Assembly (NCBI GenBank): GCA_022843225.1
Contig: JALHOC010000001.1
Span: forward strand, 20,970 to 56,773
Direction: 5' to 3'
DNA: 35,804 nucleotides
Source of the DNA: Hyphomonadaceae bacterium
GTDB lineage: Bacteria > Pseudomonadota > Alphaproteobacteria > Caulobacterales > Aquidulcibacteraceae
Shown piece after piece: positions 1 to 31,719 of this stretch; positions within the stretch are counted from its first letter, which is position 1; every line of letters starts with the position of its first letter. The notes beneath the pieces were generated by a model. It was not told where the DNA came from, ran no database searches, and worked only from the letters and a program-made list of their open reading frames with translations. A program made the translations under genes and the position numbers.

Positions 1-533
1 CGGACAAGGATCAGTTCGCGTTCTGCTGGATCGTAGACTTCCCGATGTATGAATGGAGCGAGGAAGAGAAAAAGATCGACTTTTCGCACAACCCATTCTC
101 GATGCCGAACTTCGACCATGAAGCGTTCTTGCAGCTCGATCCGGGCGACCGAGCCACGATCGAGAAGATCACTGCCTTCCAGTACGACATTGTCTGCAAT
201 GGTGTTGAGCTCTCATCGGGCGCGATCCGCAACCACAAGCCTGAGATCATGATCAAGGCGTTCGAGATCGCCGGTTATGGCCGCGACGTGGTGGAAGAGA
301 AATTCGGCGGCATGCTCAATGCCTTCCGCTATGGCGCGCCCCCGCACGGGGGCTCGGCGCCTGGCGTTGACCGCATCGTCATGCTGCTGGCGGGCGTCGA
401 CAATATCCGAGAAGTGATCGTCTTCCCGTTCAATCAACAGGCCCAAGACTTGATGATGAACGCGCCGGGAGAGGTGACGCCAAAGCAGCTGAAAGAGCTG
501 CACATCCGCATGGTGGAGCAAGCGAAGAGCTAG
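1..533 (+). CDS. aspS: Aspartyl-tRNA synthetase, C-terminal part (5' truncated by window)
   Basis: Class II aminoacyl-tRNA synthetase that charges tRNA-Asp (possibly also tRNA-Asn; the discriminating residues lie outside the window). The gene enters already open, with reading frame from base 3, and about 176 codons are visible. Seen here: the [12 protein letters not shown] segment, the [12 protein letters not shown] stretch of the class II core, and class II motif 3 as [16 protein letters not shown], whose Arg binds ATP. The tail [11 protein letters not shown] is the usual bacterial AspRS ending. The TAG stop at 531-533 overlaps the stop of the convergent NrdJ-like gene by 4 nt. Identity is secure; the start and anticodon-binding domain are missing only because of the window edge. 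Confidence 0.97.
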
Positions 534-3337
534 CCTCCGCTTGCTTCGCCCTTAGCGCCGCAGGCGTCGCAAGTTCCGCTTTCTTGCACCGTGAAGTGCC
601 CGCACGCGCCGCATGGCTCGCCGCGATAACGCGGGCCGTTTGCGGTGCGCGCAGGCGGGGCCTTGCCAACTATTTTGCCCGATGCGATGCGCTTGTCCTG
701 TGTGATCTCGGCTGTGGTTTTGGGGCGCAGCATTACCAGATTATCAGGCGCTGCGCCGCGCGCGAAACCACGTGAAATAAGCCGCGCTGCGCTCTCAGCG
801 TCTTGCGCATGTTTCGAGAGCCCATCGCCGCGCGCTTCGAAGGGATCAATTTGTGCTAGATCAGCGCGGCCCAGATAGGAGACCGCCAGTTCACGGAAAA
901 TGTAGTCGAGGATTGAGGTCGCGTGGCGGATCGTGTCGTTGCCCTTGACCTCGCCTGCAGGTTCAAAGCGCGTGAACAAGAAGGCGTCCACATATTCTTC
1001 GAGCGGCACGCCATATTGCAGGCCAATCGAAATCGAGATCGCGAAATTGTTCATCAAGGAGCGGAACGCTGCGCCCTCCTTGTGGAGATCGATGAAGATT
1101 TCGCCGAGGGCGCCATCGTCATACTCGCCGGTGTGCAGATAGACTTTGTGGCCCCCGACCGTGGACTTCTGAATATAGCCTTTGCGCCGTTCGGGCAGGC
1201 GACGGCGTTGCACGTCCGCTGCAAGTGCTTGTTGGGTGACACTGGCGGGCGCTGGTGGCGCGCTGATCGTTTCCGGCTCCTCGTCGAGCGTCGGCAGGGT
1301 CAGGGAAACCGGCGGCGCTTCAGCGCGGATGTTGATCAGCGCGACGCCTGCGGCTTTCGCTGATTCCAGCAGAGCCGAGCGCTTTTCATAGTCGGCATGT
1401 GTGAGCGTAATGTCGAGCGCCGTGCGCGCAAATGGCGCCACTTTCTCCGCCATGGCGATACGGGCCTGCGGGGGCACGTCAGCGGCGTTGGAGAAAATGG
1501 CGGCGTGAGCCTGATCGAGCACTTCGGCAGTTCTGAAGTCGGCCGCGCCGATGGCGAAGGCTTCCGCAGCCGCAATGTCGCTCTCGCTGAAGCCCAAAGT
1601 CATCAGAAGGTCGCCGCGTTTGCCCGCCGCAACATCAGGCGGCAGCTTAAGAACGCTCTCGCAGAATTCCGGCCCGATCACGAGCGGATGGATGGCTGCA
1701 CGCAGGTTGAACGCATCGGCGATGGCGTCCTCTACGGCGTCGAGCGCGGGTTCGGTGAAACCTTTCGCCGCGAGTGTGTCGAGGTTCACGCCCGGCGCGC
1801 CTCTAAGAGTGCGCCGCCCTTCGATGTGCAGCGCGAGCGCGGCGATCTCTTCACCATCATAGCCCAGGCTGACAAGCGCGATGCGTGCGTCGTCGCTGAG
1901 AATGCGGCCGAAGCGGCCGTCTGGGTTAGCGCCGAAATTCGCGACGCCAAACACTGGGTCGAGGCCGATGCTGCCTTGGCCCAAGCGGCGCGCGCTGGCG
2001 CTGTCGAGGGCGCAAGCAATGCCGACAGAACAGCGTTGGCTGACCGTCTTCGGTAAGGCGCTGTAAAGGGCTTGCGCGCGTTCGCCAATCTGGCCCGTAA
2101 GCTGCGTCGCGGCATCGCGTGCGCGCTTCAGACTTGCGTCCTCGGCACGTTTGACGCGACTCCAATCCGCGTATGCGCCGCCTCTCTCAGCAAGGGCTGC
2201 GCTCTCGGTCATCGCCGCCGCATGGGCAAGCGCCGCGACATTGGCGGCCAGAGCGCGCGCGGTATCGCTGTCATAAGCGAGTCCGGTACGAAGTATCAGC
2301 GCGCCCAGGCCCTCCAAGCGGAGAAAAATGGCGCGACGCTGTGAGACCGGCGCCTCGCCATGCGCTGCATTAAGCGCGCGCACCAGTGCACGCACAGCAG
2401 CTTCGAAAGCCGTTGTGTCGAAGCCGTTGGATGCGTCGTGAAACCGCGGCAACGCCAAACTTGCGCCAATGGCGACGTCGTCGGTTTGCGCTGCAAACGC
2501 GCCGGTTGGATCGATGACGCCATCGGCCAGCGCGGTCAGCGCGTGCGCGCCGGGCTCGCTTGCGGCAATGGCGACGCGGTTGCGTGCTTGGCCCGCGCCG
2601 GCGTCGATGGCGGCGGCATAGGCGCCGCGTGCGACGGTCCCGGAGAGCGCCGCAAGGATGTCGGAATCTGGCGCGCCCGCGAGACGCGCGACTGCCGCTT
2701 TGCGCTGCACCGCGCCATGTTGCGCATTCAAACCGGCGCGCACAGCTTCGATGGCAAGCTCAGCCAGTGCCGCGTCGAGCGCGCGTGCGCCGGCAGCCAA
2801 GGCCGCGTCTGCGCGTGAGCGAGCTTGGTCATTCGCCAGCACCGTTGTGTCGCCGTGCGCGCGAACAAGCACTGACGGGCCGTCGATGCCGTCTGGATCA
2901 AAAAGCCGAGCGCTTGCGTCGAGGGCATCGAGCGCGGCGGCTTTTGGCGCGCCATTGATACCGATCTTGCAGCCGGCGGCGAGCAAGGTTTGCGCTTGTG
3001 CGAGGGCCTCGAATTCGGCGCGTGGCGTCTCTGGCCAAGTGAGAACCGCCGCCGAGGCTGTCTCGACTTTTGAGTCCAAGAGGGCTGCTCGGATCAAGGC
3101 GGGATCGAATGCGATCTTGCCGTCGCGCAGCAAGGCGGCGATTTGGGCGTCAAGAGCGGGGTCGCCCGCCCAAGCGCCGAGGTGCTCTGCGACGGCATCA
3201 ATGGCGGCCTCTATGTTGGCGGCCTGCTCGTCCTCTATCACCAGGCCGCTCTCCAGCGCCGCGCGGGCCATGCCTTCGCTCCAGTTCGGCGGGGCGGCCA
3301 CCGTCAGTGCATGGTCGTCGTCTAGGTCGTGGGCCAT
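530..3337 (-). CDS. Degenerate B12-dependent ribonucleotide reductase (NrdJ-like) paralogue with TSCPD domain and zinc ribbon
   Basis: A 935-residue protein that aligns by eye along much of class II RNR NrdJ but lacks its chemistry. Residues 720-825 ([53 protein letters not shown]) are a near-perfect alphaproteobacterial NrdJ TSCPD region, and C909/C912/C923/C926 form the terminal zinc ribbon. Residues 344-391 ([15 protein letters not shown] and following) and 488-690 still track NrdJ. The loop that is N-P-C-x-E in active enzymes (radical Cys, catalytic Glu) reads D276-P-T-G-A280. The following C-N-L-A-S is A-I-G-A-S (289-293), and the A-P-T-G-T-I phosphate loop is unrecognisable near 440-448. 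The N-terminal 330 residues are Ala-rich and helical-looking. I chose ATG 3337, with GGAG 8 nt upstream, over TTG 3388. The frame is intact, so this is a maintained pseudoenzyme rather than a pseudogene. A regulatory, nucleotide-sensing or RNR-partner role is inference. It overlaps aspS by 4 nt. Confidence 0.85.
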
Positions 3338-3386
3338 GGGGCGCGTCTCCGAAAGCAATGCGAAGCTACGCCCGTTGGGGGTATGC

Positions 3387-3402
3387 AATCAACATTTAGT
3401 GG
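3387..3402 (-). promoter_or_regulatory. Candidate NrdR box 2 upstream of the NrdJ-like gene
   Basis: On the minus strand this reads CCACTAAATGTTGATT, 11 of 16 against the recalled NrdR consensus. It begins 33 bp after box 1, about three helical turns. NrdR sites typically occur as tandem pairs with similar helical phasing. Together the two boxes bracket the -10-like TAAAAT. Weaker than box 1; it gains support only from its spacing and from the NrdJ-related gene downstream. Confidence 0.35.
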
Positions 3403-3419: not shown

Positions 3420-3435
3420 TCCCAAGATATTGTTT
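3420..3435 (-). promoter_or_regulatory. Candidate NrdR box 1 upstream of the NrdJ-like gene
   Basis: Read on the minus strand, this 16-mer is AAACAATATCTTGGGA. Against the NrdR-box consensus as I recall it (ACACwATATaTwGTGT) it matches 12 of 16 positions, including the central AATAT core. It lies about 83 bp upstream of the chosen start. A TAAAAT -10-like hexamer abuts it (minus strand, 3419 to 3414), though I see no convincing -35. NrdR is the ATP-cone repressor of RNR genes in bacteria. The match is by eye from memory and a weight-matrix score has not been computed. Confidence 0.45.
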
Positions 3436-3553
3436 CGCGACTGCACTGGACGCGCTCACGGCGCGACGCCATAGTGCTGTTCTGACGTTGATTTGCCCTG
3501 ATTTTCCTCTATCGGGCCGCGAAGTCAGGGTCCGGGAGCCAAAAGTACAGCTC

Positions 3554-3952
3554 ATGCTTAAGCGGATATTCACTTGGTGGAACGGAGCGACCCTTGGCGC
3601 GCTGTTCGACATTGGCCGTCGCGGCGTGCTGGTTGGCCAGGACGAGCAGGGCAATAGGTACTTTGTAGAGCGCCGCGCCAGCCAGGATGGCGGCAAGCGC
3701 CGCTACGTCATTTACAAGGGCTTGGCGGAAGCGTCGCGCGTGCCGCCGGATTGGCATGCCTGGATGCACTACACGATCGACGAGCCGCCGAGCGTTAAGC
3801 CGCTGAAGCGCCAGACTTGGGAAAAGCCTCACTTGCCCAATCAAACCGGAACCGTACGCGCATACCGGCCGAAGGGATCGCTAGCGCGCGGGGGCGTACG
3901 CGCTGCGGCTACGGCGGATTACGAAGCATGGACGCCTGGAGATAAGCCATGA
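3554..3952 (+). CDS. NDUFA12/B17.2-like complex I accessory subunit
   Basis: A 132-residue protein of the NDUFA12 family, an accessory subunit of NADH:ubiquinone oxidoreductase found in mitochondria and alphaproteobacteria. It acts on the cytoplasmic face of complex I. The N-terminus MLKRIFTWWNGATLGALFDIG, then GQDEQGNRYFVER, VPPDWHAWMH and WEKPHLPNQTGT are the family hallmarks. I start at ATG 3554 because family members begin MLK..FTWWNG; the upstream TTG at 3488 would add 22 unrelated residues. The stop overlaps the mlaD-like ATG by 4 nt, so the two are probably translationally coupled. The main nuo operon is not in the window, which is usual for this gene. Confidence 0.93.
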   Translation: MLKRIFTWWNGATLGALFDIGRRGVLVGQDEQGNRYFVERRASQDGGKRRYVIYKGLAEASRVPPDWHAWMHYTIDEPPSVKPLKRQTWEKPHLPNQTGTVRAYRPKGSLARGGVRAAATADYEAWTPGDKP

Positions 3953-4419
3953 AGCTCAATCTCGAGCGCTGGGGAGAGACGCTCCTTGGCGCGGCGGTAG
4001 CGGTTGTGGCGGTTGGATTTTTTGTATTCGCGGCAGCGCAGGCCGGGCAAACGAGCGGCGCCTCCGGGTACGATTTGATCGCGCGCTTCCAGCGCGTCGA
4101 TGGCGTCGCGGTTGGGTCTGATGTGCGCGTTTCCGGCGTGAAGGTCGGCGTTGTGCGCGCTGTGGCGCTCGATCCGGCAACCTATTTGGCGCAGTTGACA
4201 CTCACCGTAAACGAAGACGTGCAGGTCCTTGATGATTCCACCGCCCGCATCGCCAGCGATGGCTTGCTGGGCGGCGCGTATGTCGCGATTGAGCCGGCGG
4301 GTCTCGATGCGTTGGCGCCAGGCGCCGAAATTCCCAACACGCAAGGCGCGGTCGATTTGCTCACCTTGTTCGCGAGCTTCGCGCAGGGCCAATCTCAAAA
4401 CGGGGACGCGCCACAATGA
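3949..4419 (+). CDS. mlaD: MlaD-type MCE-domain protein (phospholipid transport)
   Basis: A 156-residue single-MCE-domain protein. MlaD is the periplasmic, inner-membrane-anchored hexamer that passes phospholipids between the MlaFEB ABC transporter and periplasmic carriers to keep outer-membrane asymmetry. One N-terminal membrane helix (about residues 11-30, GAAVAVVAVGFFVFAAAQA) is followed by the MCE domain at about 38-120 (YDLIARFQRVDGVAVGSDVR, VSGVKVGVV, GGAYVAIEPAG). The C-terminus has a short hydrophobic segment (LLTLFASFAQ) like the MlaD central-pore helix. The mlaF, mlaE and mlaB genes are not adjacent. It overlaps both neighbours by 4 nt (ATGA), so it is the middle cistron of a three-gene unit. 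Confidence 0.9.
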   Translation: MKLNLERWGETLLGAAVAVVAVGFFVFAAAQAGQTSGASGYDLIARFQRVDGVAVGSDVRVSGVKVGVVRAVALDPATYLAQLTLTVNEDVQVLDDSTARIASDGLLGGAYVAIEPAGLDALAPGAEIPNTQGAVDLLTLFASFAQGQSQNGDAPQ

Positions 4420-4781
4420 TCCGTGCATTACTTGCAGCTTTGGTGCTGACATTCGCCGCTGTCGGGCCAGCCTACGCGCAGCGCGCGGTCGTTCGAGGTT
4501 TGGATAAGGTTACCGGACACGCGCGCGATTATTCGCTGACTATTGGCCGCCCCGCACGGGTCGGTACGCTCGAAGTCGTCGCGCGGTCGTGTTCAAAGAA
4601 CGCGCCGGAAGAGACGCCGGAAGTGCGCATTTATGTCGAGGTGTTCGACAGCCCGCCCGCGCGCGCCGGCGAAGAGGCGGAGCGCCGCGAGATCTTTCAT
4701 GGCTGGCTATTCGCCTCCAGCCCAGGGCTCTCAGCCATCGACCACCCAACCTATGATCTTTGGGCGATCGATTGCCGCTGA
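4416..4781 (+). CDS. DUF2155 exported protein
   Basis: A 121-residue protein with a clear Sec signal peptide (MIRALLAALVLTFAAVGPAYAQ, cleavage after AYA) and a DUF2155 body. Features typical of the family are ARVGTLEVVARSC near residue 46, the acidic PEVRIYVEVFDSP strand, and IFHGWLFASSPGLSAIDHPTYDLWAIDC. Two cysteines, one in VARSCSK and one in the terminal WAIDCR, could form a disulfide. The family sits beside NDUFA12-like genes in many alphaproteobacteria, and its biochemical role is unknown to me. It overlaps the MlaD gene by 4 nt. Confidence 0.88.
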   Translation: MIRALLAALVLTFAAVGPAYAQRAVVRGLDKVTGHARDYSLTIGRPARVGTLEVVARSCSKNAPEETPEVRIYVEVFDSPPARAGEEAERREIFHGWLFASSPGLSAIDHPTYDLWAIDCR

Positions 4782-31330: not shown

Positions 31331-31405
31331 TGGCTCCGCGGGTAGGATTCGAACCTACGACCAGCCGGTTAACAGCCGGCTGCTCTACCACTGAGCTACC
31401 GCGGA
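31331..31405 (-). tRNA. tRNA-Asn (anticodon GUU)
   Basis: A complete 75-nt cloverleaf on the minus strand. Acceptor stem TCCGCGG pairs with CCGCGGA, the discriminator is G, and CCA is encoded. The D-arm is GCTCAGTGGTAGAGC, the anticodon stem AGCCGGCT/AGCCGGCT region presents loop CTGTTAA with anticodon GTT, and the T-arm contains GGTTCGAATCC. No own terminator is seen immediately downstream on this strand. Confidence 0.96.
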
Positions 31406-31645: not shown

Positions 31646-31719
31646 TGGAGGCCTCGCCCGGAATCGAACCGGGGTGCACGGATTTGCAATCCGCTGCGTC
31701 ACCACTCCGCCACGAGGCC
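31646..31719 (-). tRNA. tRNA-Cys (anticodon GCA)
   Basis: A 74-nt cloverleaf on the minus strand. Acceptor stem GGCCTCG pairs with CGAGGCC, the discriminator is U73 (the tRNA-Cys identity base), and CCA is encoded. The anticodon stem GGATT/AATCC surrounds loop TTGCAAA with anticodon GCA. The T-arm contains GGTTCGATTCC. It is divergent from the PIMT-like gene at 31829. Confidence 0.96.

What the first reader, a model, noticed from the sequence alone, without database searches (positions are those of the whole stretch)
530..3337. A full-length NrdJ relative that has lost every recognisable catalytic element of a ribonucleotide reductase
The protein keeps an almost perfect TSCPD region (720-825), the Cys4 zinc ribbon (909-926) and readable NrdJ segments (344-391, 488-690). 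Where active class II enzymes have N-P-C-x-E it has D276-P-T-G-A280. C-N-L-A-S is A-I-G-A-S, and A-P-T-G-T-I is gone. The frame is intact over 935 codons with a good ribosome site, so selection seems to maintain a non-catalytic form. Possible roles: an RNR regulatory or scaffold subunit, a dNTP or cobalamin sensor, or a protein exploiting the TSCPD/zinc-ribbon module. I do not know of a described function for this family.
Basis: partly seen in the sequence, partly recalled or inferred. Interest (0 to 1): 0.8.

Follow-up and report, generated by a model that had tools for sequence, protein, structure and literature searches.

The report
Dead reductase keeps one living domain
A bacterial gene annotated as a vitamin-B12-dependent DNA-precursor enzyme has lost its known catalytic parts, yet one of its domains is still kept almost letter for letter across many relatives, which suggests that this domain does a second, unrecognised job.

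Summary
The gene (530-3337, minus strand, 935 aa) descends from class II ribonucleotide reductase NrdJ but lacks its catalytic residues. It sits in the nrdJ slot, beside NDUFA12 and DUF2155 in 40 of 40 degenerate loci examined, so it is most simply nrdJ decayed in place. In its order 286 of 298 genomes have an NrdJ-like match but only 65 match an active alphaproteobacterial barrel. Decay is uneven: in 65 degenerate proteins 60 of 262 columns fixed in active enzymes survive, but 34 of 35 in the TSCPD domain. The four ribbon zinc cysteines survive in 65 of 65, the two redox cysteines in none. A pair of NrdR-box-like palindromes lies near the start of 36 of 62 degenerate genes; scrambled motifs average 0.1. 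Similar decay occurs elsewhere in the class, down to stand-alone TSCPD proteins in the same slot of small genomes. Class I NrdA/NrdB in the window's genome looks intact. Best reading: a repurposed, non-catalytic NrdJ whose TSCPD/zinc-ribbon module docks on a partner in dNTP supply or replication. The partner is unknown. The papers searched held no description.

The parts
530..3337 (-). degenerate NrdJ coding sequence, 935 aa from ATG 3337 (952 aa from TTG 3388)
845..1207 (-). TSCPD (IscU-like) domain, residues 728-848 of 952; the strongly conserved part
   Evidence: AlphaFold pLDDT mostly 92-95 in the model of the C-terminal module
560..613 (-). zinc ribbon CxxC...CxxC (four Zn ligands kept, redox pair lost)
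   Evidence: C1, C2, C4, C5 in 65 of 65; C3 and C6 in 0 of 65
1484..1972 (-). helical region after the barrel, weakly conserved (matches 7b9q 685-847)
2138..2464 (-). barrel remnant recognised by PF02867
2498..2512 (-). relic of the NPCxE catalytic loop, here DPTGA
2459..2473 (-). relic of CNLAS, here AIGAS
1994..2011 (-). relic of APTGTI, here ALDSAS
3346..3350 (-). GGAGA ribosome-binding site before ATG 3337
   Evidence: sequence
3390..3399 (.). NrdR-box-like palindrome, nearer the gene
   Evidence: member of the only such pair in the window
3423..3432 (.). NrdR-box-like palindrome, 33 bp further out
45..533 (+). 3' part of aspS (AspRS), tail to tail with the gene; common neighbour of this slot
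   Evidence: named from sequence and recall, not by a family scan
3488..3952 (+). NDUFA12-family gene, divergent; marks the nrdJ slot
3949..4419 (+). MlaD-family gene
4416..4781 (+). DUF2155 gene; marks the nrdJ slot

Best explanation
Shown: the gene lies where active nrdJ lies in relatives and lacks all the catalytic residues tested; its TSCPD domain and structural zinc site are under strong protein-level selection; its promoter has a paired palindrome that looks like NrdR boxes; and the genome has class I NrdA and NrdB. Inferred: when NrdAB took over ribonucleotide reduction, the active site and redox tail were lost, but the TSCPD/zinc-ribbon module had a second job that did not need them. 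I think it is a docking module that binds a partner in dNTP supply or DNA replication when NrdR allows expression; class I RNR is the first candidate partner, and the decayed barrel is mainly a spacer or passenger. The repurposing claim is about 0.8 likely, the link to dNTP supply or replication about 0.5, NrdAB as direct partner about 0.25.
For: Spread: 286 of 298 order genomes have an NrdJ-like match, 65 the active barrel, 293 NrdB. Selective retention: of columns invariant in 33 active enzymes, 60 of 262 are kept overall, 34 of 35 in TSCPD; families f2 and f3 are 0.17 identical in the barrel and 0.84 in TSCPD, active enzymes of the order 0.63 and 0.86. TSCPD dN/dS about 0.04 in the window's genus, 0.11 in f3, with free synonymous change. 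Zn ligands kept 65 of 65, redox pair 0 of 65. Same slot as active nrdJ. Degenerate rows on one side of a branch, SH-aLRT 100, in a 403-column tree. NrdR-like pair near the start of 36 of 62, scrambled motifs mean 0.1, maximum 1; similar pair before own nrdB (31 bp) and some active nrdJ genes. Stand-alone 278-282 aa TSCPD proteins in the same slot, in genomes with an NrdA-like match and no NrdJ over cut-off.
Against: No partner was identified and no function tested. Twelve of 298 genomes, eight of them from one genus, have neither form. The NrdR-like pair was not found at 26 of 62 degenerate genes, including all nine f4 rows and seven of eight f2 rows, nor at the stand-alone forms, nor at nine active nrdJ genes of the order, nor as a pair before own nrdA; nrdR was not searched for, and the spacing in the window's genus is 33 bp against 31 bp in Streptomyces. 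Within the window's genus the rest of the protein is also constrained (barrel dN/dS 0.27, against 0.23 in active f5 enzymes), so the barrel may not be a mere passenger there. In L134 the TSCPD domain itself has decayed. A role unrelated to dNTPs is not excluded.
Confidence: 0.5

Rival explanations
1. Moonlighting outside nucleotide metabolism: the TSCPD domain serves another alphaproteobacterial process (translation, metal or Fe-S handling, envelope), and its stay inside nrdJ is an accident of history.
For: Stand-alone forms without NrdR-like boxes. IscU-like fold reported for class II C-termini by PMC9669993 (passages); 10 of the 50 listed Foldseek rows are IscU chains or ISC complexes, none significant (best E of any row 0.41).
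Against: The NrdR-like promoter pair is present at 36 of 62 degenerate genes. The window's TSCPD segment has no cysteine for a cluster (sequence).
Confidence: 0.28
2. Regulatory or scaffold subunit of class I RNR: the whole protein, barrel included, forms a mixed complex with NrdA and senses dNTPs, replacing the missing ATP-cone.
For: Own NrdA shows no ATP-cone in Pfam; NrdB in 293 of 298 genomes; NrdR-like boxes; the barrel is still constrained within the window's genus (dN/dS 0.27); the AlphaFold model resembles RNRs (Foldseek top 7b9p, E 7e-19). I raised this odds from 0.12 to 0.15 on re-reading.
Against: Below the TSCPD stretch few of the residues fixed in active enzymes remain (20 of 214), and the barrel falls to 17-27% identity between families. 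Stand-alone TSCPD forms have no barrel.
Confidence: 0.15
3. NrdJb-like electron-delivery subunit for some other NrdJ, as in the split enzyme of Pseudomonas aeruginosa.
For: Same domain pair as NrdJb (passages of PMC4520616 and PMC9669993). Of 11 degenerate-bearing order genomes checked, 3 (G001, G022, G067) carry another class II NrdJ over the cut-off.
Against: The redox cysteine pair is lost in 65 of 65, and the window's genome has no NrdJ over cut-off.
Confidence: 0.02
4. A decaying pseudogene, still open by chance.
For: Most of the protein evolves faster than TSCPD; broken frames in L023, L029 and G223, and a shifted start in L019.
Against: Open over about 760-1,060 codons in the other complete frames through four families; TSCPD 82-87% identical across families with free synonymous sites; Zn ligands 65 of 65.
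Confidence: 0.04

Closest known systems
Alphaproteobacterial class II RNR, NrdJ (PRK07562 type; solved relative 7b9p/7b9q of Rhodobacter sphaeroides)
   Same: Same genomic slot; helical region, TSCPD domain, four-Cys zinc site; top Foldseek hits
   Different: No catalytic loop, no barrel redox Cys, no C-terminal redox pair, N-terminal class II domain not detected, far below the model cut-off
NrdJb of Pseudomonas aeruginosa (separate IscU-like plus zinc-finger chain of a split NrdJ; passages)
   Same: A non-catalytic protein carrying the same C-terminal domain pair
   Different: NrdJb mediates thiol-disulfide exchange for NrdJa; here the redox pair is lost and no NrdJ over cut-off is in the genome
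Herpesvirus R1 homologues with non-RNR functions (recalled; an EBV RNR subunit that regulates another enzyme is mentioned in a passage of PMC9669993)
   Same: Precedent for an RNR large subunit relative with another job
   Different: Viral class I relatives, unrelated event; the retained part here is a class II C-terminal domain
Caulobacter crescentus 'NrdJ' CCNA_01966 (named in PMC6538847 and PMC5869019, one passage each)
   Same: By inference the same degenerate family: the C. vibrioides control rings for TSCPD, and none of the 14 controls is over the PRK07562 cut-off, which three active alphaproteobacterial enzymes pass at 1929-2144 bits
   Different: Its own sequence was not read; searches put 7 controls over the broader TIGR02504 cut-off without saying which

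Membership tests
Class II ribonucleotide reductase (NrdJ) | NPCxE loop with the thiyl-radical cysteine | tested here: not met
   DPTGA; 0 of 65 keep Asn, Cys or Glu
Class II ribonucleotide reductase (NrdJ) | barrel redox cysteines | tested here: not met
   Cys of the PHACFI column 0 of 65, Cys of the CNLAS column 1 of 65; role of these Cys recalled
Class II ribonucleotide reductase (NrdJ) | C-terminal redox cysteine pair (Cys933/Cys945 of S. nassauensis) | tested here: not met
   C3 and C6 in 0 of 65; four Cys in the last 45 aa in 65 of 65, six in 32 of 32 active rows with an intact end
Class II ribonucleotide reductase (NrdJ) | score over the PRK07562 or TIGR02504 cut-off | tested here: not met
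   377.6 of 1737 and 41.3 of 399.95 bits
Class II ribonucleotide reductase (NrdJ) | C-terminal TSCPD (IscU-like) domain and four-Cys zinc site | tested here: met
Class II ribonucleotide reductase (NrdJ) | adenosylcobalamin binding and nucleotide reduction | not testable with these tools
   needs the protein
NrdJb (split class II RNR subunit) | redox pair and an NrdJa partner in the genome | tested here: not met
NrdR regulon | two palindromic boxes about three helical turns apart upstream | tested here: met
   exact pair at 33 bp; similar pair at 31 bp before own nrdB; box features from passages of PMC9110341
NrdR regulon | nrdR gene present and acting on this promoter | not tested
Pseudogene | relaxed selection and random frame breaks | tested here: not met
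   a few broken frames exist

The most novel reading that the evidence does not exclude
The TSCPD (IscU-like) domain carried by alphaproteobacterial NrdJ is an independent functional module that has always done a second job. It survives when class I RNR makes NrdJ chemistry redundant, first inside a decaying barrel and in the extreme as a stand-alone protein at the same locus. In many genomes it is still run as part of the NrdR regulon, and it acts on class I RNR or the replication machinery.
Probability: 0.3. Interest if true: 0.9.

Novelty: new variant of a known kind. Interest (0 to 1): 0.77.

Why it matters
[quoted passage not shown] Models of nucleotide reduction and B12 need that include it (for example the pathway drawn in PMC6538847) would need correcting. 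It would also give the unexplained TSCPD/IscU-like domain of class II RNRs a function separable from catalysis, testable in a laboratory model organism by deletion and fragment complementation.

Tried and rejected
Active enzyme with a relocated catalytic loop: rejected; a search of the frames held for NxCxE, C[NT][LI]x[SA] and [APGS]P[TS]G[TS][IV] gave, in degenerate frames, one chance CTLDA (L104). Paralogue beside a real nrdJ: rejected; same slot as active nrdJ in 8 of 14 active loci, and none of 50 order genomes re-searched showed both a degenerate and an active alphaproteobacterial-type copy. Conservation of TSCPD for DNA reasons: rejected; fourfold sites vary by 35-62% within families. 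Cobalamin riboswitch: no Rfam match at 9 active or 9 degenerate loci, and only two tRNAs in the window. IscU homology by fold: not significant. Independence of the decayed lineages outside the order: a tree on TSCPD alone (130 columns) cannot decide it. One clade for all degenerate rows is not rejected (AU p 0.315); the same test for the order's own rows gave p 0.751; a third test did not finish. Repeated loss is therefore inferred from taxonomy, not shown. My first NrdR-box scan with a recalled consensus was mostly no better than shuffles; the motif CNANATNTNG was then taken from the window gene, own nrdB and own nrdA after looking, and tested with scrambled motifs and other spacings.

Dropped rows: the 65 degenerate rows (window plus 64) and 33 active rows remain after dropping rows with the same last 300 residues, L002-L007, the broken L029 and L076, and the fragment L052. 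Five degenerate rows are partial: L021, L022, L080, L083 (locus edge) and L023 (broken). The promoter count uses the 62 degenerate rows whose frame does not start at a locus edge, and looks 250 bp to either side of the open frame's 5' end, so a few misses (L008, L023, L027, L079) may be due to long or broken frames. Degenerate and active were read from sequence only in these rows; the figure of 221 genomes is a difference of two searches.
Full report
Observation. The frame at 530-3337 (minus) is real: 935 aa from ATG 3337, with GGAGA nine bases upstream, or 952 aa from TTG 3388. Pfam finds a barrel fragment (309-417) and TSCPD (741-835) above cut-off. The NCBI NrdJ model PRK07562 gives 377.6 bits against 1737. 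The only solved relatives found by sequence are 7b9q and 7b9p, matched at 473-635 and 352-412.

The family. A scan of named genomes gave 47 loci. Of these, 22 (L008-L029) are close orthologues, 57-73% identical in the best segment, all from metagenome-assembled genomes titled Hyphomonadaceae, Caulobacteraceae, Terricaulis or more broadly. Seventeen are open from the shared start, one (L019) is open but its shared ATG is in another frame, 2 are cut by a contig end and 2 are broken. A search of 298 genomes of the order found an NrdJ-like match in 286 at E 1e-5 or better. A barrel query from an active enzyme of the order (L091) found 65 at E 1e-60 or better, all among the 286. That leaves 221 with only a degenerate-type match and 12 with neither, eight of these from one genus. 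NrdB was found in 293 of 298. All 33 active rows carry NPCSE, CNL[AS]S and APTGTI; the degenerate frames lack all three apart from a chance CTLDA. Their open frames are mostly shorter (763-1,061 aa), though L008's stop-to-stop frame is 1,188 aa. Fifty order genomes, mostly those with two or more matches, were searched again; none shows both forms. Of 11 degenerate-bearing order genomes checked, three (G001, G022, G067) carry another class II NrdJ of 582-779 aa over the TIGR02504 cut-off; the window's genome does not.

Origin. The gene lies where active nrdJ often lies. NDUFA12 and DUF2155 are beside it in 40 of 40 degenerate loci examined and 8 of 14 active loci, two of these (L031, L032) from outside the order (first seen by clustering neighbours). 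A tree on 403 columns of the helical and TSCPD regions puts all 65 degenerate rows on one side of a branch (SH-aLRT 100); f2 and f3 rows each group together, f4 rows group with one f1 row (L102), and f1 lies in several branches. Shared decay could help to draw these rows together. The simplest reading is nrdJ decayed in place and inherited within the order, while the f5 genomes and part of f4 kept the active form.

What selection keeps. Of 262 columns invariant (97% or more) in the active rows, degenerate rows keep 60 (same residue in 80% or more): 20 of 214 before L091 position 1000 and 34 of 35 at 1000-1149, the TSCPD stretch. Between sampled f2 and f3 rows identity is 0.17 in the barrel and 0.84 in TSCPD; among active enzymes of the order 0.63 and 0.86. 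TSCPD thus evolves in the dead protein about as in the live one. In the window's genus dN/dS is about 0.04 in TSCPD and 0.13-0.36 elsewhere (barrel 0.27; active f5 enzymes 0.05 and 0.23); in f3 it is 0.11 against 0.51-0.83. Synonymous sites are near saturation, so these ratios are rough, and the first set says that the rest of the protein is not free of selection in the window's genus. At the C-terminus the four zinc ligands are kept in 65 of 65 and the other two cysteines in none. By spacing those two match Cys933 and Cys945, the proposed redox pair of Loderer et al. (PMC5704485, passages). The electron relay is gone and the structural zinc is kept.

Structure. AlphaFold gives mean pLDDT 77.6 for the whole protein; the 50 Foldseek rows listed are all reductases, led by R. 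sphaeroides NrdJ at E 7e-19. In the model of the C-terminal module pLDDT is mostly 92-95 over TSCPD. Its fold matches are not significant; 10 of 50 listed rows are IscU chains or ISC complexes, in line with the IscU-like domain reported by Burnim et al. (PMC9669993, passages), who say no role for it had been reported.

Promoter. The window holds one pair of the palindrome CNANATNTNG at 30-34 bp spacing, at 3390-3399 and 3423-3432, just upstream of the gene. Such a pair (one mismatch allowed, 31-33 bp) lies within 250 bp of the frame's 5' end in 36 of 62 degenerate genes; 200 scrambled motifs gave a mean of 0.1 and a maximum of 1, and the spacings peak at 32 and 33. Own nrdB has an exact pair at 31 bp, own nrdA no pair within one mismatch. 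Exact pairs stand at 6 of 30 active genes, all Sorangium or Caedibacter, and near pairs at 11 of 20 active class relatives in a wider stretch without a scrambled control. NrdR boxes are palindromes with conserved G-C pairs nine apart and a 31-bp offset (PMC9110341, passages). The match is strong but inferred: the motif was defined after looking, nrdR was not searched for, nine active nrdJ genes of the order lack the pair, and so do 26 of 62 degenerate genes.

Beyond the order. In 192 genomes of the class, 130 match at E 1e-20 or better. Fetched outliers include a 918-aa degenerate NrdJ (L125) with four-Cys ribbon and a near NrdR-like pair; 530-667 aa forms with TSCPD (L127-L129); and stand-alone TSCPD proteins of 278-282 aa with no barrel (L130 and L131 at 27% GC in 1.2-Mb genomes, L132 at 29%). 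L127-L132 and L134 have NDUFA12 close by, as in the window; L125 does not. The eight genomes concerned have an NrdA-like match and no NrdJ over cut-off. In L134 the TSCPD domain has also decayed; L135 is the converse, an NrdJ with all motifs and a six-Cys tail but without TSCPD. Whether these are independent losses is not resolved.

Caulobacter. C. crescentus CCNA_01966 is called NrdJ and drawn in the nucleotide-reduction pathway (PMC6538847, one figure-legend passage). The C. vibrioides control rings for TSCPD, but no control is over the PRK07562 cut-off, which L033, L090 and L091 pass at 1929-2144 bits. Seven controls are over the broader TIGR02504 cut-off, unnamed. I infer that CCNA_01966 belongs to the degenerate family; its sequence was not read, and that f3 is Caulobacteraceae is also inference.

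Mechanism. The module kept is the one that in other class II enzymes takes part in oligomerisation and terminal reduction, or docks on NrdJa (PMC5704485, PMC4520616, passages). With the redox pair gone, docking is what remains. The promoter evidence points to dNTP supply or replication. Own NrdA and NrdB look intact by motif and NrdA has no ATP-cone in Pfam, so class I RNR is a natural first partner to test, but nothing here shows binding.

Literature. Ten searches and passages of twelve papers gave no description of this family; two searches listed 30 of 102 and 10 of 79 papers. The library lacks most subscription journals, and two Caulobacter essential-gene papers were not held, so essentiality is open.

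Noticed in passing
L010:8827-9408, L084:8300-10320, L091:9184-9735 and others: A pentapeptide-repeat protein gene (apparently exported, by its N-terminus) lies downstream of nrdJ on the same strand in 31 of 40 degenerate and 8 of 14 active loci, in several after only 3 nt, but not beside it in the window's genome.
   Followed up: partly
L130:4891-5724, L131:4626-5465, L132:4732-5577: Stand-alone TSCPD proteins of 278-282 aa in the nrdJ slot of small AT-rich alphaproteobacterial genomes.
   Followed up: partly
L135:5008-7713 (-): The converse case: an NrdJ with all catalytic motifs and a six-Cys tail but no TSCPD match.
   Followed up: partly
L134:4281-7181 (-): A 967-aa degenerate NrdJ beside aspS in which the TSCPD domain has decayed too.
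   Followed up: no
L125:2496-5249 and L126:3-2294: Genome G481 holds two nearly identical degenerate NrdJ copies on different contigs; real duplication or assembly artefact not decided.
   Followed up: no
G001:C4:49109-50713, G022:C3:154990-156639, G067:C39:18794-20428, G002:C1:145938-147593: A further class II NrdJ of 582-779 aa over the TIGR02504 cut-off in some genomes of the order, too short to carry the usual long C-terminus; domains not scanned.
   Followed up: no
L136:5323-7694 (-): Degenerate NrdJ of a one-contig genome split into overlapping frames of 624 and 432 aa, with TSCPD and ribbon in the second.
   Followed up: no
window 31334-31405 and 31649-31719 (-): Two tRNA genes by Rfam.
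   Followed up: no
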